Shown here: piece after piece, positions 35,320 through 44,233 of the stretch
Numbering within the stretch: the first letter of the stretch is position 1
Layout of the letters: each line of letters begins with the position of its first letter
DNA from: Inhella sp.
GTDB lineage: Bacteria > Pseudomonadota > Gammaproteobacteria > Burkholderiales > Burkholderiaceae_C
DNA: 63,243 nucleotides
Reading direction: 5' to 3'
NCBI RefSeq assembly: GCF_027532025.1
Contig: NZ_JAPZSY010000001.1
Location: 1 to 63,243 of the forward strand
Notes under the pieces: generated by a model
What the model was told of the DNA's origin: nothing
Seen by the model: the letters and a program-made list of their open reading frames with translations, nothing else
Database searches by the model: none
Made by a program: the position numbers and the translations under genes

Positions 35320-38088
35320 TTACTTGATGGCGTAGTTCAGGCTGACGAAGTAGCTGCGGCCGCGGGGGTCGCCGTAGGTCGGGTCCCAGGTCACCTGGAA
35401 GTAGCGCGACTGGTTGGTGAACGGCGGCGCGGTGTTGAACAGGTTCAGCACGCCGGCACGCAAGCGCAGGTTCTGGTTGAAGCGGTAGCTGCCCGTCAGG
35501 TCCCACAGCGAGTAGGCCTTGACGTCGCGGTTGCTCCAAGCCGGGGCCGACAGGCCGTCCACGTTTTGGTCGCGGTAGCCGGACATGAAGGTGTTGCCCA
35601 GCGTGAGGCCGACATCGCCGTAGTCCCAGTCGATGTTCAGCTTGTGGCGCCAGCGCTGCACGGCCTTGTCATCGCGGAACTTGCCCAGGCCGTCCACCAG
35701 CGGCGAGCGGGGGTCGGTGTTGAACTTGTACTCGGTGACGAGGGTGCCGTTGATGCTGGCCCCGAAGCGCCCCACCGCAGTGGATTCGCCACGCCAGCTG
35801 AGGTTGACGTCCACCCCCGAGGTGTTCAGCTTGCCGCGGTTCTCCTTCTTCACGTTCACGTAGTTGACGAAGCCGTCCGAGAAGCGCACCACGATGGCCG
35901 GGTTGTTGTAGTACACCGGGTTGGTGAAGATGGTTTCTTCGCCGATTTCCGAAATGATGTCGGTCTTGCGGATGGTCCAGAAGTCGATCGCGCCGCTGAA
36001 ACTGCGGTTGGGCTCGAACACCACGCCCAGGCTGGCCTGCTTGGACTTTTCCGGTTGCAGTTCGGGGTTGGAGGCGCGGTCGATGGGCATCTGGGCCACT
36101 TCGCCCGAGACGGGGTCCTTGACGAAGCTGGCGGTGATGCCCGAGCGCAGGGGGCGGAACATCTCCGACACCGACGGGGCGCGGAAGCCCGTGCCATACG
36201 ACGCGCGGGCCAGCAGTTGCTTGCTGGGGCGGAAGCTCAAGCCCAGCTTGGGGTTGGTGGTGCTGAGCTTGGGCGAGGTGCGGCCGGTGGCGGCGTCGAA
36301 CACGCCGTCGTAGCGGTCGTGGCGGATGGCGAATTGACCTTCCCATGCCTTGGTGAACGGCGCATTGAGTTCGGCGAAGAAACCACCCACGTCGCGGCTG
36401 TGCGAGGTGTCGGCCAACAGCGCGCCGGCGCTGGAGCGGTCGCCGTTCACGTCGTTGCTCTTGAGCACGGCGCTGGACGAGAACTCGGTCTTTTCGCGGC
36501 GGATTTCAGCGCCCAGGGCCAACACGGCATCGCCGCCGCCCAGAGAGGCGATGGCGCGCGTCAGCTTGCCGTCCCAGCTGGTGGAGCTGCCTTCGGCGAT
36601 GCGGGCAGCGCCGTCCAGCCGGATGGAGTTCATGAAGGCCTGACCGGCCGCCGGGTTGGTGCTGCGCACGAAGGGGTTGTACAGGCCATCGCGGATGCCC
36701 GACTCCAGGCGGCTGAACGAGACCCAGCCCGACAGGTTGGTGTCGGTGGCCTTGTTCACGCTGTGGTTGAGGGCCGTGTCGTAGTCCCAATCGCCCCAGG
36801 TGCCCGTCAAGCCAGCAACCAGGCGGGTGGCTTCGCTGTCGACGCGGCTGGTGCGCTTGCCGGCGTCGGTCAGGCGGAAGCGGAAGTCGATCGGCGTGGT
36901 CACGCCGGTCACGGCCTGCAGGGAGGCCGGCAGGCGGATGCCCGAGCTGGTGCGGAAGCGGGCCGTGGCGGGCGAGGCGGCGTAATCGGTCGAGGTCTTG
37001 CTCAGCAGCGCCTCGGCGAAGAACTGGTGGTCATCGGCCAACTGCACCGTGGCGCGGCCCACCAGGGCGAGCTTTTCGGAGGCCGGGTAGATCTCGGCGT
37101 CGCCCATGTAGTTGTAGGAGCAACCTTCCAGACCGCCGGGGCCGGTGGGCGCGCGAGAGTTGGGGTTCAGGCCACCCGTGCAACTGGCTTTGTCCAGGTT
37201 GACGCGGCGGGCGCCCCAGGTGCCGTCGGGGTTGGAGCCGCGCAGCGCCGTGGTCGGGTTGGCGAGCACGAAGTTGTTCAGCGTGGTGCGCTGGGCGGTG
37301 CTCAGGTCGATGTTGGCCGGGAAGGTGTTGCTGGACAGCTGCTGGGGCAGGCGCGTGGCCAGGTCGTACTCGAGGATGAAGTCCCGCTGGTTGCTGTTCA
37401 GAGCGCCCAGCTTCTGGACATCCACAGCCACAAATGCATTGGCGCGGTCGGTGCGCAAGTCGCCCACACCGGCCGAGGCCGAGAAGGTCTTCTTGCTGGC
37501 ACCGCCCTCGTGGGTGGCCAGGGCGTAGGTTCGGAAGTCCACGCCACGGTAGTCTTTGCGGGTGATGAAGTTGATGACGCCGCCCATGGCGTCGGTGCCG
37601 TAGATGGCGGAGGCGCCGTCCTTCAGCACTTCCACGCGCTCGATGGCGCCGGAGGGGATGTTGTTCAAGTCGACGCCAGCGTTGTCACCGGGCGAAGCGA
37701 AGTTGGCCAGGCGGCGGCCGTTGAGCAGCACCAGGGTGCTGGACACGCCCAGGCCACGCAGGTTGGCGCCGTTGAAGCCGCGCTGGTTGCCCGCGGTGTC
37801 GGTGATGCTGGCGCCGTCGGTCAGGCCGCCCACGTTGGCCGTCAGCTGCTGCAGCAATTCAGCCGCGGTGGTCACGCCGGCCTTGTCGATGTCAGCACGC
37901 TTGACGATTTGCACCGGCAGCGGCGTTTCGCCGTCGATGCGCTTGATGCTGGAGCCGGTGACTTCTACGCGGTCGAGTTGTTGTGGTGGGGCGGTCTGGG
38001 CGAGCGCGACGGCGCTGGCCACGGAAGTCAGCGCCAGGAGGCTGGCCTGGGCGAGTTGGCTCAGGCGGAGGGTGGGGTGCAGAGGCAT
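35320..38088 (-). CDS. TonB-dependent outer-membrane receptor
   Basis: 922 aa. The signal peptide ends near ALAQ. The plug starts at VEVTGSSIKRID and includes LRGLGVSSTLVLLNGRR and VLKDGASAIYGTDAMGGVINF. The C-terminal barrel shows the familiar GYRDQNVDG and LRLRAGVLNLF blocks and ends in an aromatic-rich strand (SYFVSLNYAIK). There is no extra N-terminal signalling domain. Family members import siderophores, vitamins, oligosaccharides or peptides. Here the gene is divergent from a secreted cyanophycinase and shares its control region with ArgR-like sites, so uptake of cyanophycin fragments or arginine peptides is a reasonable guess. Confidence 0.93.
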   Translation of the reverse strand: MPLHPTLRLSQLAQASLLALTSVASAVALAQTAPPQQLDRVEVTGSSIKRIDGETPLPVQIVKRADIDKAGVTTAAELLQQLTANVGGLTDGASITDTAGNQRGFNGANLRGLGVSSTLVLLNGRRLANFASPGDNAGVDLNNIPSGAIERVEVLKDGASAIYGTDAMGGVINFITRKDYRGVDFRTYALATHEGGASKKTFSASAGVGDLRTDRANAFVAVDVQKLGALNSNQRDFILEYDLATRLPQQLSSNTFPANIDLSTAQRTTLNNFVLANPTTALRGSNPDGTWGARRVNLDKASCTGGLNPNSRAPTGPGGLEGCSYNYMGDAEIYPASEKLALVGRATVQLADDHQFFAEALLSKTSTDYAASPATARFRTSSGIRLPASLQAVTGVTTPIDFRFRLTDAGKRTSRVDSEATRLVAGLTGTWGDWDYDTALNHSVNKATDTNLSGWVSFSRLESGIRDGLYNPFVRSTNPAAGQAFMNSIRLDGAARIAEGSSTSWDGKLTRAIASLGGGDAVLALGAEIRREKTEFSSSAVLKSNDVNGDRSSAGALLADTSHSRDVGGFFAELNAPFTKAWEGQFAIRHDRYDGVFDAATGRTSPKLSTTNPKLGLSFRPSKQLLARASYGTGFRAPSVSEMFRPLRSGITASFVKDPVSGEVAQMPIDRASNPELQPEKSKQASLGVVFEPNRSFSGAIDFWTIRKTDIISEIGEETIFTNPVYYNNPAIVVRFSDGFVNYVNVKKENRGKLNTSGVDVNLSWRGESTAVGRFGASINGTLVTEYKFNTDPRSPLVDGLGKFRDDKAVQRWRHKLNIDWDYGDVGLTLGNTFMSGYRDQNVDGLSAPAWSNRDVKAYSLWDLTGSYRFNQNLRLRAGVLNLFNTAPPFTNQSRYFQVTWDPTYGDPRGRSYFVSLNYAIK

Positions 38089-38168
38089 GGCAGGGGTCCA
38101 GCGGTGGAAGTGACGGGTTGAACTCTAGGAAGCTCGGCAAGGCGCGCAGGAGCGGGTTCTGGAGCAGG

Positions 38169-38210
38169 AGTCGCATGCGTGCAAATCGGTGTCGCTTGGC
38201 GACAACCGGC
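38169..38210 (+). promoter_or_regulatory. Tandem ArgR-type (AraC family) binding site
   Basis: Two direct half-sites at exactly 21-bp spacing. The first is AGTCGC-N8-AA-N5 from 38169, the second TGTCGC-N8-AA-N5 from 38190. The Pseudomonas aeruginosa ArgR consensus recalled from the literature is TGTCGC-N8-AA-N5, directly repeated. Only one of the 16 fixed positions differs. The second half-site also forms a TGTCGC/GCGACA palindrome. An ArgR-like regulator is encoded in the operon that starts 180 bp downstream. Confidence 0.65.
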
Positions 38211-38231
38211 GTGGCGCGGCCGCCGCACGGA

Positions 38232-38247
38232 TTGCCTCGATGCGACA
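38232..38247 (-). promoter_or_regulatory. Third ArgR-type half-site, reverse strand
   Basis: Read leftward this is TGTCGC-N8-AA, a perfect half-site match facing the TonB receptor gene. No convincing partner is found at 21 bp on either side. It could be a weaker site or chance. Confidence 0.4.
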
Positions 38248-38389
38248 CGGACTTGCACCCGCAGGGTGCGTTGCGGGTGCTCCCGCAGACGCCCTGGGCC
38301 CTGGGCCCACCAGAATCCATCGCATGCCAAGGGCCCGACCCGGACCTTGGGGCCTTGGGGCCTTTCCCGTTTTGCCATCCCCTGTTCCC

Positions 38390-39679
38390 ATGAATTCTTT
38401 GCGCACCTTCCTCACTTTGGGCCTGGCCTTGGTCGCCACATGGGCGGTGGCCACCCCACCGGCGCCGCGTCCGCCGGGTGCTGTCGTGGCCCTCGGGGGC
38501 GCGTTGAAGGTCGACAACACGGCCGTGTGGTCACGCTTGGTGCAGGAGGCCGGCGGCCGAGGGGCGACGTTCGCCGTGTTTGCCACCGCCGCCGAGAACC
38601 CTGAGCGCAGCGGGGAGCGCATCGCCCAGGCCCTGAATGCCGCCGGTGCCAAGGCCGAGGTGATTCCGGTGGCGCCACGATTGCCCACCACGGAATGGAA
38701 GGCGCTGCGCGACGACGCGGCGCTGGCGCAGCGCGTCTCGCGCATGCAAGGCGTTTTCTTCAGCGGCGGTGCGCAAGAGCTCATCACCAGCACCCTGCGC
38801 CCCGATGGGCGCTCGACGGCCGTCTTGCAAGCGGTGCGGCAGGTTTTGGAGCGCGGGGGGGTGGTGGCGGGTACCAGCGCCGGCGCGGCCATCATGAGCG
38901 AGTGGATGTTTCGCGATGCGCAAGACACCTTGGCTGTGCTCAAGGGGCGCATGCGCGAGGGGCAGGAAATCGACCGCGGCCTGGGTTTCGCCGGTCCGGA
39001 CATCTTCGTGGACCAGCACTTCCTCAAGCGGGGCCGCATCGGTCGCATCCTGCCGGTGATGCAGGCCAAGGGCTACCGCTGGGGGCTGGGTGTGGAAGAA
39101 AACAGCGGCGCCATCATCCGCGGGCACCAAGTGGAGGTGATCGGGGCGCGCGGTGTTTTGGTGGTGGACCTCAGCGCGGCCCAGCGTCGCACCGACTTGT
39201 CGGCCTTCAACGTGCAAGGGGCCTTGCTCAGCTACTTGGAGCGTGGCGATCGCCACGACTTCGCCACCGGCGTTACCACCCCAGCACCGGAGAAGCTGGC
39301 GGGCACCATCAACCCCCGCAGCCCCGACTTCAAGCCCTTTTTCAAGCGCGCCCCCTTCCACCCCGACATGTTGGGCGACAGCACCATCGCCAACGCCATG
39401 GCCCAGTTGGTGGACAGCCCGGACGAGGAGTTGTTGGGCCTGGCCTTCAACGGGCGGGCGCTGGCGCAAGGCAGCAAGGCAGCGGCCGACGACCTCGATC
39501 CGACGCTGGGCTTCGAGTTCCGACTGTCCAAGGCGGCCGATTCGCGCGGCTACTTCACCGGTGCCTGGGGCGGCGAGGACTACACCGTGACCCGCATCCG
39601 GCTGGACGTGACCCCGGTGCGCCTGAATACCCCGCTGTACCAAGCGCTGACCCCGAACCGCGCCGCCGACGCGCGTTGA
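38390..39679 (+). CDS. Secreted cyanophycinase-like serine peptidase (S51 family)
   Basis: 429 aa. A signal peptide of about 21 residues indicates export. The class I glutaminase-like fold has the nucleophile Ser163 in GTSAGAA and the cyanophycinase hallmark DQHF followed by RxRxGR (~208-219). Cytoplasmic CphB is about 270 aa; the extra C-terminal domain (~240-429) and signal resemble extracellular CphE-type enzymes. Expected reaction: cutting cyanophycin (multi-L-arginyl-poly-L-aspartate) to beta-Asp-Arg dipeptides. First gene of a six-gene operon; the next gene is 20 nt away. Start chosen at the signal-peptide ATG. Confidence 0.85.
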   Translation: MNSLRTFLTLGLALVATWAVATPPAPRPPGAVVALGGALKVDNTAVWSRLVQEAGGRGATFAVFATAAENPERSGERIAQALNAAGAKAEVIPVAPRLPTTEWKALRDDAALAQRVSRMQGVFFSGGAQELITSTLRPDGRSTAVLQAVRQVLERGGVVAGTSAGAAIMSEWMFRDAQDTLAVLKGRMREGQEIDRGLGFAGPDIFVDQHFLKRGRIGRILPVMQAKGYRWGLGVEENSGAIIRGHQVEVIGARGVLVVDLSAAQRRTDLSAFNVQGALLSYLERGDRHDFATGVTTPAPEKLAGTINPRSPDFKPFFKRAPFHPDMLGDSTIANAMAQLVDSPDEELLGLAFNGRALAQGSKAAADDLDPTLGFEFRLSKAADSRGYFTGAWGGEDYTVTRIRLDVTPVRLNTPLYQALTPNRAADAR

Positions 39680-39699
39680 CCCTCCGACCGAACGATTCC

Positions 39700-40815
39700 A
39701 TGAGATCCCAACACCACGTGCTGCGCGGCAGCCCCAGCGGCACGCAGCGCAGTTTGCTCAGCCTTCACTTTGGGCCAGCCCACAGCGGCCGGCAGGCCTT
39801 GCTGCAGTGCGCGTTGCACGCGGACGAAATCCCGCCCCTGCTGGTGGGTTACCACCTGCGCCAGCGTCTGGCCTCGTTGGAGGCCGCAGGGCAGCTCAAG
39901 CACGAAGTCGTGCTGGTGCCGGCCGCCAATCCCATCGGCCTGGCGCAGCACCTGTGGGGGCGGCATCAGGGTCGTTTTGAGATCAACAGCGGCCACAACT
40001 TCAACCGCCACTACCCCGACCTGGCTGCGGCTGCGGCGGAGCGGGTGCAAGGCCGCCTGAGCGACGACGCCCGCACCAACACCCGGTTGCTGCGTGCCGC
40101 GATGCACGCGGCGCTCGCGGCCTGCACGGTGGAGACCGAGTTGCAGTCGCTGCGCCAAACCCTGCTGGACCTGACCATCGACGCCGACATCGTGCTGGAC
40201 CTGCACTGCGACAACCAGGCGGTCATGCACCTCTACACCACGCCGCACCACCCCGAGGTGACGCGAGACCTGGGGCGCTGCCTGCAAGCCCCCCTGGCAC
40301 TGATCGCCGAGGAGAGTGGCGACTTCCCGTTCGACGAGTCCTGCTCCATGGTGTGGTCCAAGCTGCAGGCCCTGTTGCCTGGGCACCCGGTCGACCTGGC
40401 CTGCTTTGCAGCCACGGTGGAGCACCGGGGTGAGGCCGACGTCAGCCACGCGCTGGCGGCGCAAGACGCCGACGGATTGCTGCGCTTCCTGGCCCGCCAA
40501 GGCTTCATCCAGGGCGACGTAGGCTCGACCGAGCCCTTCGACTGCAGCCTGCGCCCGCTGGCGGGGTCGCTGCCCCTGAATGCGCCGCACGCCGGCGTGC
40601 TGGTCTACCACGTCGAGCCGGGGGCCGAAGTCAAGGCAGGGCAAGCGATGGTCGAGGTCATCGATCCGATCGGCGGAGAATCCACCCTCCTGCGCAGCCC
40701 CGTCGATGGGCTGTTTTACGCCCGTGAGCAACAGCGATGGGCCCAGGCGGGCCAGAAGCTGGCCCGGGTGGCTGGGTTCGAGGCCAAGCGCACGGGCAAG
40801 CTCCTGAGCGCCTGA
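39700..40815 (+). CDS. M14-family deacylase, AotO/CphZ position (likely beta-Asp-Arg hydrolase)
   Basis: 371 aa, succinylglutamate desuccinylase/aspartoacylase family. Zinc ligands are predicted at His40 and Glu43 (LHADE) and His169 (LDLHCDN), with a catalytic Glu near 241 (VEHRGE). A C-terminal beta-barrel-like part follows (~280-371). No signal peptide, so cytoplasmic. In P. aeruginosa a protein of this family (AotO) precedes aotP-argR, as here, and relatives have been described as cyanophycin-dipeptide hydrolases (CphZ). Position after a cyanophycinase supports that. AstE activity (succinylglutamate) is the main alternative. Confidence 0.75.
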
Positions 40816-40831
40816 TCGGACCTTTTCGCCC

Positions 40832-41596
<765 letters not shown>

Positions 41597-41601
41597 GGCG
41601 C

Positions 41602-42591
41602 ATGCAGGACGTGGCCATCCTCCAGCTGCCGGGTGCCTCGCGCCTGGGCGGCCAGCTCCTGGTGGAGCTGCTGGAGGGGGCCAACGCCCTGCTGCCCGAG
41701 CCGGCCTTTCGGCCGCATTGGTGCGCGGTCGGCCCCGCGCAGGAGCAGGCCTTCGATCCCCAGCGCGACTGGGCCCACGTGTGGGTGCTGGCGCCTTGGC
41801 GTCTCCTGGCCAGCAGCGACGCCTTGGCCTCACTGCCCGCCCAACTGCAGCGCGTGGCGCAGCGCGGTGCTCTGCTGGGCGCAGTCGAGGGGGGCGTGTT
41901 GTGGCTGGCCGCGGCGGGCCTGTTGAACGGACGTCGAGCCTGTGCCATCGATTGGCTGACGGGTCACCTGCAGCAGCAGCATCCGGATGCCGTGTGGAGC
42001 CAATCTCTCTACGAGATCGACCTGCCGCCCCGGCCGGTGCTCAGTTGCGCCCGACCGCTGGCCCTGCCAGACCTGCTCTTGGCATGGCTGGCGCGCGAAC
42101 ATGGCGATGCGCTGGCCCGGCAGTTGGGTGGGCGCTTGGGGCTGTCGAGCCTGCGCGGGCGCGACGAACGCGTGCTGGGCGAAGCCCAAGGCCACGCGCT
42201 GATGCCGCCCAAGCTGGCCGAGGCTTTGACCCTCATGCAGGCCAACCTGGCCGAGCCGCTGCCCACCGACGACATCGCCCGACTTGTGGGCCTGTCGCGC
42301 CGGCAGTTGGAGCGGCTGTTCAAGCAACACCTGGACGCGCTGCCCAGCCGCTACTACCTGGAGCTGCGCCTGAACCGCAGCCGCGAATTGCTGCAGCGCA
42401 CCGGCCAGTCCATCTTGCAGGTGGGTTTGGCGTGTGGCTTTTCCAGCGGCCCCCATTTTTCCAACGCCTACAAGGCCACCTTCGGCTGCACGCCGCGCGA
42501 AGAGCGCGCCCGTGAAGCCGCCGGGTGGCGCGAGCACCGCCAGCAAGAGCTGGGCGGTGCCGTTGGCCACCGCGACGTGAGAGCGGCATGA
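41602..42591 (+). CDS. argR: ArgR-like AraC-family transcriptional regulator
   Basis: 329 aa. The N-terminal GlxA/DJ-1-like sensor domain (~1-185) is followed by two helix-turn-helix motifs (~220-242 and 268-292; [16 protein letters not shown] is the second). This is the architecture of Pseudomonas ArgR, the arginine-responsive regulator of aot and aru operons, and the aotP-argR order is the same. Matching operator half-sites lie at the operon promoter (38169-38210), implying autoregulation. The stop overlaps the next ATG (ATGA). Not the unrelated hexameric ArgR of E. coli. Confidence 0.8.
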
Positions 42592-43574
42592 CCTCTGAAC
42601 CCACCCTGTGCCTGCGCCCCGTGCGGCGCGACGACCTCGACGGCCTGCAGCGCCTGGCAGCGGGCGCCAGCCCCGGCATCGGCTCGCTGCGCAACGATGC
42701 CGCCTGGTTGGCCCAACGCATCGAGCACTCGTTGCAGGCCTTTGCCACCGATGACGACGAGGTCAGCGGCGAGGAGCGCTACCTGTTCGTGTTGCACGAC
42801 GAAGCCACCGATCGACTGGTGGGCTGCAGCGGCATCACCGCGCGAGCCGGGTACGGCTCGCGCTTTTACAGCTACCGCAACGAATTCGTGGTGGCCAGCA
42901 GCGCTGGCCTGGGCATCACGCAGCGCACCCACACCCTGCACCTGTGCCACGACCTCACTGGCACCACGCTGCTCACCTCGTTCTACATCGAACCCGAGTG
43001 GGCCGAGGGCGCGGCGCCGCAGTTGTTGTCTCGCGGCCGCCTGCTGTTCATCCGGCAATTCAGCCAGCGCTTTTCGGACCGCATCGTGGCCGAGCACCCC
43101 GGTTGGCTCGATGCCCAGCGCAACAGTCCCTTCTGGGATGCCGTGGGGCGCCGTTTCTTCGCCATGGACTACCCGCAAGCCGAGGCCTTGGCCGGGGGGC
43201 GCAGCAAGGCCTTCATCGCCGAACTCATGCCCACCTCGCCCGTGTACGTGCCCTTGCTGCCCGAGGCGGCGCAACGCGCCATCGGCCAGTTGCACCCCGA
43301 TGGCGAACTGCCCTTCGCCATCTTGCAGGACGAGGGCTTCGACGCCGAGACCTACATCGACCTCTTCGACGGCGGCCCCATCACCGAAGGCCGTTTGCAT
43401 GCGCTGGGCAGCGTGCGCGCGGCCCGGGCGCGGACGCCCCGTGCAGAACCCGTGCCCGTCATCGCCTGCCATGGCCGGCGCGAGGGCTTCGAGGCCCGCG
43501 TGTTGTGGGGGACAGCCCCAGCCACTTGGGGCGAAGGTGGCCTGATCACCCCTTTGGAGCGTGACGAAGCATGA
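42588..43574 (+). CDS. astA: Arginine N-succinyltransferase (alpha subunit, AruF/AstA)
   Basis: 328 aa, close to full length for AstA/AruF (~340). Conserved blocks: LRPVRRDDLDGLQRLA, SRFYSYRNEFVV, HLCHDLTGTTLLTSFY, LDAQRNSPFWDAVGRRFF, FIAELMPTSPVYVPLL, GFDAETYIDLFDGGP. It succinylates arginine with succinyl-CoA, the first step of the ammonia-producing AST pathway to glutamate. Coupled by ATGA overlaps to the regulator before it and the short paralogue after it. The astB, astC and astD genes are not in the window. Confidence 0.9.
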   Translation: MTSEPTLCLRPVRRDDLDGLQRLAAGASPGIGSLRNDAAWLAQRIEHSLQAFATDDDEVSGEERYLFVLHDEATDRLVGCSGITARAGYGSRFYSYRNEFVVASSAGLGITQRTHTLHLCHDLTGTTLLTSFYIEPEWAEGAAPQLLSRGRLLFIRQFSQRFSDRIVAEHPGWLDAQRNSPFWDAVGRRFFAMDYPQAEALAGGRSKAFIAELMPTSPVYVPLLPEAAQRAIGQLHPDGELPFAILQDEGFDAETYIDLFDGGPITEGRLHALGSVRAARARTPRAEPVPVIACHGRREGFEARVLWGTAPATWGEGGLITPLERDEA

Positions 43575-44233
43575 GCCCGACGTTTCGCCTTTTGCCCCAG
43601 GCACCCCAGGGCGCCGTGGCTCACGAAGAAACCGGCGGCCAATGGTGGTGGGCCGAGTCCCAAGACCGCCACGCCTGGCTGCACGTTCAACCGGAGATGG
43701 GGCGGTCGCGGCCCCGCTACCACTTCCACCTCGGCCGCGTGGTGCACGCCGCATCCGAGCTGGGCCTCTACCAGGTCCAACCCCTGCTGCTGCTGGGTCA
43801 CGACGCCACGGGTGAAGCCGAGCTGAGCGCTTGGGGCGGGGATGAAAGCTTGTGGCCGGCTTTGGTGCAGCACGCCCTGTCGGTGTTGCGGGCCATGCGT
43901 CCGGCCGGCACCCTGGTGGTGGCGGAATTGCCCGGCTGGCGCGACCCGCAGGGGCACAGCCCCTTCTGGCAAGGGCTGGTGCGGCATTTCGCGCCGCAGG
44001 TGGCGCCGGGCCAGGTGGAGCGCTTGGGCCCGGCCTTCACCTCGCACCTGGGCCCCTTGTTGCCCCGGCAGCCGGTGCACGGCGCTTTGTTGCCGGCTGC
44101 CACCCAGGCGGTGTTGGGCCGCGCCGCCGATTCGACACAGCCTTGGCGCCATACGCTGCAGGCCGCTGGCTTTGCCGATTGGCGCCACTTGCGCATCGAC
44201 GACGGCGGGCCCGTCTGGGCCCGACCGCTGTAG
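43571..44233 (+). CDS. Short, diverged AstA-like protein (possible beta subunit)
   Basis: 220 aa. Aligns by eye to the middle and C-terminal parts of AstA: RPRYHFHLGRVVHAASELGLY, LGHDATGEAELS, ELPGWRDPQGHSPFWQGLVRHF, then LLPRQPVHGALLP and a final GFADWRHLRIDDGGP. The first ~80 residues of AstA are missing and several conserved positions differ. Pseudomonas has two full-length subunits (AruF, AruG); this could be a reduced AruG or a regulatory remnant. Frame is intact and its start overlaps astA (ATGA), so it is probably expressed. Confidence 0.75.
   Translation: MSPTFRLLPQAPQGAVAHEETGGQWWWAESQDRHAWLHVQPEMGRSRPRYHFHLGRVVHAASELGLYQVQPLLLLGHDATGEAELSAWGGDESLWPALVQHALSVLRAMRPAGTLVVAELPGWRDPQGHSPFWQGLVRHFAPQVAPGQVERLGPAFTSHLGPLLPRQPVHGALLPAATQAVLGRAADSTQPWRHTLQAAGFADWRHLRIDDGGPVWARPL

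What the first reader, a model, noticed from the sequence alone, without database searches (positions are those of the whole stretch)
35320..44233. Candidate arginine-sensing cyanophycin utilisation locus
Seen: a six-gene unit with gaps of 20, 16 and 5 nt and then two ATGA overlaps. It encodes a signal-peptide-bearing cyanophycinase, an M14 deacylase, an AotP-like ATPase, an ArgR-like AraC regulator, AstA and a short AstA-like protein. A TonB receptor is divergent. Known: cyanophycinases yield beta-Asp-Arg; AotO/CphZ-type M14 proteins and the aotP-argR order occur in Pseudomonas; AstA starts arginine breakdown. Inferred: the bacterium scavenges cyanophycin made by others, imports the pieces, and degrades the arginine. 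I saw no cyanophycin synthetase in the window. Combining a TonB receptor, a secreted cyanophycinase and the first AST step under one regulator is, to my knowledge, not a described unit.
Basis: partly seen in the sequence, partly recalled or inferred. Interest (0 to 1): 0.82.

Follow-up and report, generated by a model that had tools for sequence, protein, structure and literature searches.

The report
Cyanophycin-eating locus with orphan AstA pair
A bacterium carries a gene set that looks made for digesting and importing cyanophycin, a nitrogen-storage polymer of microbes, and the set keeps the first enzyme of an arginine-degradation pathway although the rest of that pathway seems to be gone, so that enzyme may have a different job.

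Summary
In detail: seven genes at the stated coordinates, six in one tight run, one divergent TonB receptor. The window is from an Inhella species (Burkholderiales). Cyanophycin use is well supported: the S51 protein keeps the catalytic residues and a leader-like N-terminus, the M14 protein is closest to the cyanophycin-dipeptide-hydrolase (CphZ) type, and TonB receptor plus cyanophycinase occur together in 56 of 60 comparable loci. Two parts of the interpretation fail. (1) The genome does encode cyanophycin synthetase, on another contig. (2) AstA does not start a recognisable AST pathway: AstB and AstE gave no match in the genome, and no AstD reaches its cut-off. In 149 relatives, the 8 genomes with AstB all lie in other families; the 13 AstA genomes of this family have none. 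Some betaproteobacterial MAGs carry a longer version: TonB receptor, cyanophycinase, aotJQM, CphZ, aotP, argR, astC-A-A-D-B. The window type looks like a derived form that lost astC/D/B once and kept the AstA pair. AstA alpha stays conserved; its partner became a short, confidently folding subunit without the putative catalytic His. Verdict: a known kind of locus, a new variant, with an orphan acyltransferase pair whose reaction is the open question.

The parts
35320..38088 (-). TonB-dependent outer-membrane receptor (922 aa), divergent from the operon; leader-like N-terminus
   Evidence: PF00593 135.6 bits, PF07715 82.3 bits; hydrophobic N-terminal run; a TonB receptor match is found in 60 of 60 loci with enough flank, divergent and under 2 kb from the cyanophycinase in 49 of the 56 that have both
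38390..39679 (+). Exported-looking cyanophycinase, CphE-like, peptidase family S51 (429 aa)
   Evidence: TIGR02069 127.9 bits, cut-off 126.6; PDB 7uqv, 3en0 cyanophycinases; S163, H210, E237 and D208-Q209 identical in 16 of 16 aligned sequences, window included; hydrophobic leader judged by hydropathy only
39700..40815 (+). CphZ-type M14 beta-Asp-Arg hydrolase (371 aa), in the place that an M14 gene holds between aotM and aotP in L113/L114; no leader-like start
   Evidence: PDB 8ein/8eip 249/246 bits over residues 6-362, the two other PDB matches 78 and 73 bits; the aligned E that differs (E to A) between 8ein and 8eip is E here; PF24827; order in L113/L114
40832..41596 (+). AotP-like ABC ATPase, probable partner of a distant aotJ-aotJ-aotQ-aotM set (contig C100)
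   Evidence: HisP-type, 384 bits; own aotQ/aotM at C100:20132-21486; the aotJJQM loci of 6 of 6 genomes in the genus search show no AotP-like match in the stretches held
41602..42591 (+). AraC-family regulator (329 aa) in the argR position
   Evidence: PF12833, PF00165; an AraC gene stands between aotP and astC in L113 and L114
42588..43574 (+). AstA alpha subunit (arginine/ornithine succinyltransferase, alpha type), putative catalytic H236 kept
   Evidence: TIGR03243 323 bits over cut-off 284; TIGR03245 alpha 335.5 under its cut-off 458.8; PDB 1yle 277.8 bits; His in 69 of 70 AstB-less alphas
43571..44233 (+). Short AstA beta-derived partner (220 aa) without the putative catalytic His
   Evidence: PF04958 91.8 bits; closer to canonical beta than to canonical alpha in 68 of 69 AstB-less cases, window included; His column: 12 of 12 canonical betas, 5 of 69 AstB-less betas; AlphaFold pLDDT 90.5, only significant PDB fold match 1yle

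Best explanation
The unit is a cyanophycin-utilisation operon. Shown by sequence: an exported-looking S51 cyanophycinase, a TonB receptor, a CphZ-type dipeptide hydrolase without a leader, an AotP-like ATPase, an AraC regulator in the argR position, and an AstA alpha/beta pair. Inferred: the cyanophycinase cuts external (or released) cyanophycin to beta-Asp-Arg; the TonB receptor brings polymer fragments or dipeptides across the outer membrane; AotJQM (encoded elsewhere) with AotP from this operon imports them; CphZ releases Asp and Arg in the cytoplasm; the regulator switches the unit on when arginine is present; arginine then goes mainly through arginase. The operon descends from a longer one that also carried astC, astD and astB. 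After what looks like a single loss of those genes the AstA pair was kept and changed: a conserved alpha with a shortened beta that has lost the putative catalytic His. It most likely still succinylates (or otherwise acylates) arginine, ornithine or a cyanophycin-derived dipeptide, but as a step outside the AST pathway, with an unknown fate for the product.
For: Gene identities and catalytic residues of the cyanophycinase. Conservation: of 60 loci with at least 8 kb upstream and 3.5 kb downstream (of 77 found), TonB receptor 60, cyanophycinase 56, M14 55, AraC 60, beta subunit 60. Longer forms: 5 of those 60 (8 of all 77) carry astB; the 5 carry cyanophycinase, aotJQM, CphZ, aotP, argR, astC, astD and astB together. 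Absence of AST: own genome; AstB in 8 of the 8 AstA genomes outside the family, 0 of the 13 inside it; of 55 AstB-less loci 0 carry astD and 1 a distant astC-like gene. Single origin: 69 AstB-less alphas form one group, SH-aLRT 92, one change on the tree. Retention: 97 of 114 canonical-alpha fixed columns kept at 80% or more, 40 of 125 for beta; dN/dS about 0.21 and 0.24 against I. crocodyli, similar to the cyanophycinase at 0.20.
Against: No activity, expression or growth data. The TIGR02069 margin is 1.3 bits. The genome is a draft in 144 contigs at 99.19% completeness, so a missing gene is not proof for this one genome (the 13-genome pattern is stronger). TonB substrate and regulator ligand are inferred from position only. 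Signal peptides were judged by hydrophobicity, not by a trained predictor. Four of 60 loci lack a recognisable cyanophycinase and five lack the M14 gene. The catalytic role of the AstA His is recalled from UniProt (E. coli His229) and was not tested; 2 of 12 canonical alphas have N in that column. The AlphaFold beta model overlays 1yle with an rmsd of 7.4. The longer cyanophycin clusters themselves show no astE match in their flanks (0 of 8 loci), so even they may not be a complete AST unit. The tree is a quick one with long branches.
Confidence: 0.72

Rival explanations
1. One reading: AstA makes N2-succinylarginine as the entry to a working AST pathway, completed by enzymes encoded elsewhere.
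For: AstA alpha is well conserved. Aldehyde dehydrogenases scoring 225 bits or less against the AstD model exist; ArgD-type aminotransferases could replace AstC (established knowledge).
Against: No AstB and no AstE match in the own genome; AstB absent in all 13 same-family AstA genomes; AstE over cut-off in 6 of 149, all among the AstB genomes; beta subunit lost the putative catalytic His.
Confidence: 0.08
2. Ornithine route: arginase makes ornithine, the AstA pair succinylates ornithine, and general enzymes finish it, so AstB is not needed.
For: Own genome has an arginase, TIGR01229 308.5 against cut-off 227.6. AruFG succinylates both arginine and ornithine according to PMC9007349 (passage).
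Against: AstD and AstE equivalents would still be needed; none over cut-off. No further gene family is shared by the loci: outside the known genes the widest family of open frames is in 6 of 77 loci.
Confidence: 0.15
3. The locus mainly mobilises the cell's own cyanophycin.
For: cphA tandem in the genome; cphA over cut-off in 12 of the 13 same-family AstA genomes (G016 has no match at E 1e-100). cphA is common in the family anyway (77 of 149 relatives over cut-off), so this is weak.
Against: Leader-like start on the cyanophycinase and constant TonB partner point outwards; cphA lies on another contig; G016 has the AstA/TonB/aot/CphZ part, and a cyanophycinase elsewhere, without a cphA match.
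Confidence: 0.12
4. The S51 protein is an exported peptidase for other arginine-rich peptides, not a cyanophycinase.
For: Bit score only just over the model's cut-off; PDB relatives match only residues 28-261 with 60-67 bits.
Against: S163, D208-Q209-H210, R214, R216, R219 and E237 are identical in 16 of 16 aligned sequences; tight linkage with the CphZ-type gene.
Confidence: 0.1

Closest known systems
aot-argR and aru (AST) genes of Pseudomonas aeruginosa, and the same order in AstB-bearing Burkholderiales (L113, L114)
   Same: Order M14-aotP-argR-astA-astA is shared; in L113 and L114 aotJ-Q-M precede it, astC stands between argR and the AstA pair, and astD, astB, astE follow. Arginine transport by aotJQMP, aruCFGDBE and ArgR control in P. 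aeruginosa: PMC8871633, passage. That the two P. aeruginosa operons are neighbours and that its M14 gene is called aotO is recalled.
   Different: A cyanophycinase and a TonB receptor are added; aotJQM are elsewhere in the genome; astC, astD, astB, astE are gone; beta subunit short and without the His.
Cyanophycin utilisation loci of scavengers (strain L21-Spi-D4, Flammeovirga pacifica)
   Same: Cyanophycinase + isoaspartyl dipeptidase + transporter for external cyanophycin (PMC10206079: parts 1 and 2 of 5 read, passages; the Ben Hania paper itself not seen).
   Different: Those use IadA/IaaA and are described for genomes without cphA; here a CphZ-type M14, an AstA pair, an AraC regulator, and cphA elsewhere in the genome.
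TonB receptor next to cyanophycinase in Citromicrobium sp. JLT1363
   Same: TonB receptor close to a cyanophycinase gene, cyanophycin proposed as substrate (PMC3400609, passages).
   Different: One strain of another lineage; the passages mention no aot or ast genes.
Cyanophycin dipeptide hydrolase CphZ (Sharon et al. 2023, PNAS)
   Same: M14 proteins annotated succinylglutamate desuccinylase/aspartoacylase are beta-Asp-Arg/Lys hydrolases (stated in PMC10206079, passage); closest PDB entries 8ein/8eip, which the PDB file calls succinylglutamate desuccinylase. That these entries are CphZ, and that AotO of P. aeruginosa is a CphZ, is recalled; the PNAS paper is not held.
   Different: Activity of the Inhella protein untested; percent identity to 8ein not computed.

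Membership tests
Cyanophycinase (peptidase S51, TIGR02069) | Score over the curated cut-off | tested here: met
   127.9 against 126.6 bits, a narrow margin
Cyanophycinase (peptidase S51, TIGR02069) | Ser-His-Glu catalytic residues (positions recalled from the Synechocystis CphB structure) | tested here: met
   S163, H210, E237 align with the 3en0/7uqv motifs and are identical in 16 of 16 aligned sequences
Cyanophycinase (peptidase S51, TIGR02069) | Hydrolysis of cyanophycin to beta-Asp-Arg | not testable with these tools
   needs enzyme assay
CphZ (cyanophycin dipeptide hydrolase) | Closest to the 8ein/8eip structures (CphZ by recall) rather than to other M14 entries, catalytic Glu kept | tested here: met
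   8ein 249 bits versus 3fmc 78 and 3lwu 73; the E that is A in 8eip is E here
CphZ (cyanophycin dipeptide hydrolase) | Specific beta-Asp-Arg hydrolysis | not testable with these tools
   needs enzyme assay
AST (arginine succinyltransferase) pathway | AstA with succinyltransferase signature | tested here: met
   TIGR03243 over cut-off, but under the alpha equivalog cut-off; 1yle match
AST (arginine succinyltransferase) pathway | AstB (N-succinylarginine dihydrolase) in the genome | tested here: not met
   0 matches, with the E. coli and Caulobacter control genomes ringing
AST (arginine succinyltransferase) pathway | AstD and AstE | tested here: not met
   AstD best 224.9 of 579.3 bits; AstE no match in the own genome at E 0.001
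AST (arginine succinyltransferase) pathway | AstC | not tested
   not searched in the genome, since family models overlap with ArgD; not in the locus: the six-gene run 38390-44233 holds no such gene
Complete aotJQMP transporter | Binding protein, two permeases and ATPase in one operon | tested here: not met
   ATPase in the window; aotJJQM on contig C100
Cyanophycin scavenging locus | Cyanophycinase + dipeptidase + transporter gene clustered | tested here: met
   of the transporter only the ATPase
Cyanophycin scavenging locus | No cphA in the genome (typical, not strict) | tested here: not met
   C138:5302-10044

The most novel reading that the evidence does not exclude
The AstA alpha / pseudo-beta pair is a repurposed heteromeric acyltransferase with a cyanophycin-linked function outside the AST pathway: for example acylating beta-Asp-Arg, arginine or ornithine to trap it, to make a signal that the regulator reads, or to enter an undescribed arginine route. 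It arose once when astC, astD and astB were lost from a cyanophycin supercluster and then spread through Sphaerotilaceae and a few other lineages.
Probability: 0.4. Interest if true: 0.72.

Novelty: new variant of a known kind. Interest (0 to 1): 0.55.

Why it matters
Betaproteobacteria were said to lack cyanophycinase (PMC5178258, searches repeated in 2016, passage), and only 2.8% of 903 cphA1-bearing betaproteobacterial genomes had a recognisable one in PMC10206079. A recurrent exported-looking system in loci from Inhella, Roseateles, Paucibacter, Pelomonas, Ideonella, Rubrivivax and others suggests that some of them are regular cyanophycin consumers. The orphan AstA pair is a concrete, testable case of a pathway's first enzyme surviving the loss of the pathway, with one subunit turned into a short, probably non-catalytic partner.

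Tried and rejected
Chance or misread frames: rejected, the order recurs in many genera. Foreign island by composition: GC of the six-gene run 69.0% against 67.9% for the window, no sign. Another conserved gene near AstB-less loci that could replace AstB: an all-against-all comparison of open frames over the 77 loci gave large families that are nearly all shadow frames over known genes (checked); families outside the known genes reach at most 6 loci. The frame filter was crude. AstA pair as decaying relics: rejected by dN/dS 0.21/0.24 and a confident beta model. The AlphaFold model of alpha was of middling confidence (pLDDT 72.5) and I drew nothing from it. Plasmid spread: 22 plasmid records with distant matches, all under 60% identity, one of them from Roseateles, not followed. 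Terminator and promoter scan uninformative. Literature: the searches listed no paper on this combination (I read listings, and passages or parts of the papers named in this report); PMC7367855 (passages) concerned cyanobacterial use and PMC12661447 and PMC10687191 (passages) only mention or cite CphZ. The 77 loci come from a scan that needs one of two short peptides of the AstA alignment, so 8 with astB against 69 without is not a prevalence. Rows dropped: L108 as a copy of L142, L156 as well from the tree; 17 of 77 loci from the counts for short flanks.
Full report
OBSERVATION. The seven genes are present at the stated places with the stated gaps (20, 16, 5 nt, then two ATGA overlaps). The TonB receptor is divergent, 301 bp away. 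A convergent dsbB-like frame follows the last gene (name recalled from its sequence, not searched).

ORGANISM. The window is contig C84 of a 3.51-Mb draft genome in 144 contigs, 99.19% complete. Its AstA is 79% identical to that of Inhella crocodyli, and the next hit is Inhella proteolytica. The I. crocodyli contig has the length of contig C9 of G001, which is labelled same genus as the window, so this is an Inhella species, order Burkholderiales.

CYANOPHYCIN PART. The S51 protein matches cyanophycinase structures 7uqv and 3en0 over residues 28-261. S163, H210 and E237 are identical in 16 of 16 aligned sequences, window included. It has a leader-like N-terminus, judged by hydropathy only. The M14 protein matches PDB 8ein/8eip at 249/246 bits over nearly its whole length, and the two other PDB matches at 78 and 73 bits; the Glu that differs between 8ein and 8eip (E to A) is Glu here. 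PMC10206079 (passage) says that proteins with this annotation are beta-Asp-Arg hydrolases; that 8ein is CphZ is recalled. The genome also has a tandem pair of cyanophycin-synthetase-type genes (C138:5302-10044): the second scores 960 bits against cut-off 850 of TIGR02068, the first 710 (under it) but 1028 against cut-off 877 of NF010623. Of the 13 same-family genomes with AstA, 12 have cphA over cut-off (all but G016); cphA is common among relatives, 77 of 149.

TRANSPORT PART. The window has only the ATPase. The closest aotQ/aotM relatives lie on contig C100 next to two aotJ-like genes. In all 6 genomes of the genus search the aotJ-aotJ-aotQ-aotM set shows no AotP-like match in the stretches held (the own contig ends about 675 bases after aotM), and a yfcC-type carrier lies near it in two. 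I infer that AotP of this operon powers that distant set; other ATPases of the genomes were not surveyed. In other genera the cyanophycin locus carries aotJQM itself, or a YfcC-like carrier (NF008611 at 368-379 bits in the two tested, under cut-off 500) between M14 and AraC.

AST PART. AstB gives no match in the own genome. Over 149 relatives, AstB is found in 8 genomes, all outside the window's family. AstA is found in 21: those same 8, and 13 of the window's family. AstE is over cut-off in 6, all among the 8, and gives no match in the own genome. AstD has no match over cut-off in the own genome, best 224.9 of 579.3 bits. An arginase (TIGR01229, 308.5 against 227.6) and an agmatinase-type protein are present. 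All 13 family genomes with AstA also have a cyanophycinase match, and in 12 of 13 AstA lies in the cyanophycin locus; in G016 the locus has TonB receptor, AraC, AstA, beta, aotJQM, M14 and ATPase but no cyanophycinase within the stretch.

ORIGIN. A scan of named genomes with the AstA alignment gave 77 loci. Of these, 60 have at least 8 kb upstream and 3.5 kb downstream. Five of the 60 carry TonB receptor, cyanophycinase, aotJQM, M14, aotP, AraC, astC, AstA alpha, beta, astD and astB; no astE match was found in any of the eight astB-bearing loci. In the other 55: TonB 55, AraC 55, beta 55, cyanophycinase 51, M14 50, astD 0, astB 0, a distant astC-like match 1; transport aotJQM+P 17, yfcC at 60% identity or more 27, aotJ alone 4, aotP alone 2, none 5. 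AstB-bearing Burkholderiales L113 and L114 have the same order without a cyanophycinase match: aotJ-Q-M-M14-aotP-argR-astC-astA-astA-astD-astB-astE; L111 and L112 have astC-A-A-D-B without the M14 part. On a quick tree of alpha subunits the 69 AstB-less rows form one group (SH-aLRT 92), the eight loci with astB (cyanophycinase seen in five, the other three cut short upstream) lie outside it, and one change suffices. The tree has several long branches, and the group's support is below the starred level.

THE ORPHAN PAIR. Alpha: 97 of 114 columns fixed in canonical alphas are kept in 80% or more of AstB-less alphas; none is replaced by another fixed residue, and three fall below half. The putative catalytic His (window H236; role recalled) is kept in 69 of 70, and in 10 of 12 canonical alphas. 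Beta: 40 of 125 fixed columns are kept; the His is kept in 5 of 69 against 12 of 12 canonical betas; the window's beta is 220 aa against a canonical median near 350, though automatic start choice makes the lengths rough. In 68 of 69 cases it is closer to canonical beta than to canonical alpha. It is not decaying: dN/dS against I. crocodyli is 0.24, alpha 0.21, cyanophycinase 0.20; AlphaFold gives pLDDT 90.5, and the one significant PDB match is 1yle, the P. aeruginosa alpha subunit (E 1.4e-13, TM 0.63 by query length, rmsd 7.4).

MECHANISM. See best explanation. Steps shown by sequence: gene content, catalytic residues, order, conservation, absence of recognisable AST enzymes. Steps inferred: substrate of the TonB receptor, pairing of AotP with the distant aotJJQM, ligand of the regulator, site of cyanophycinase action, arginase as main route, and everything about the AstA product. 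PMC9007349 (passage) notes that AruFG acts on both arginine and ornithine, so an ornithine acceptor is possible.

NOVELTY. Known: cyanophycin utilisation loci (PMC10206079), TonB receptor by cyanophycinase (PMC3400609), arginine aot/aru/ArgR control (PMC8871633). New as far as my searches go: the combined supercluster in Betaproteobacteria and its AST-less derivative with an AstA alpha/pseudo-beta pair. The library holds open-licence papers only, and the PNAS CphZ paper is not in it, so that paper may describe some of these clusters.

Noticed in passing
Own genome contig C11, about 38.5-39.9 kb (-); L073:12551-13927: A second S51 protein (459 aa, leader-like N-terminus, TIGR02069 107.9 bits, under cut-off 126.6). 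Both cyanophycinase-like proteins found look exported although the cphA products should be cytoplasmic, so how the cell uses its own granules is open. A third weak S51 match on C20 (22.9 bits) was not examined.
   Followed up: partly
L196, L205-L209: aotJ-aotJ-aotQ-aotM sets in six Inhella-genus genomes without an AotP-like match nearby, two with a yfcC-type carrier beside them: a split transporter.
   Followed up: partly
L043, L046, L048: Same-genus loci with cyanophycinase, M14 and ATPase but no AraC and no AstA match; L043 and L048 have an added gene of 258 and 250 aa, the first weakly binding-protein-like, the second without an NCBIfam match.
   Followed up: no
L054 and L064; L145 and L177: Some genomes carry two copies of the AstA/cyanophycin locus (G012; Pelomonas sp. 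V22).
   Followed up: no
L157, L167, L192: Three Lysobacterales/Xanthomonas MAG loci keep TonB receptor, M14, AraC and the AstA pair but show no cyanophycinase match.
   Followed up: no
L160, L162, L166, L169, L174: Long cyanophycin-AST superclusters in Rhodocyclaceae and other betaproteobacterial MAGs, without an astE match in the flanks.
   Followed up: partly
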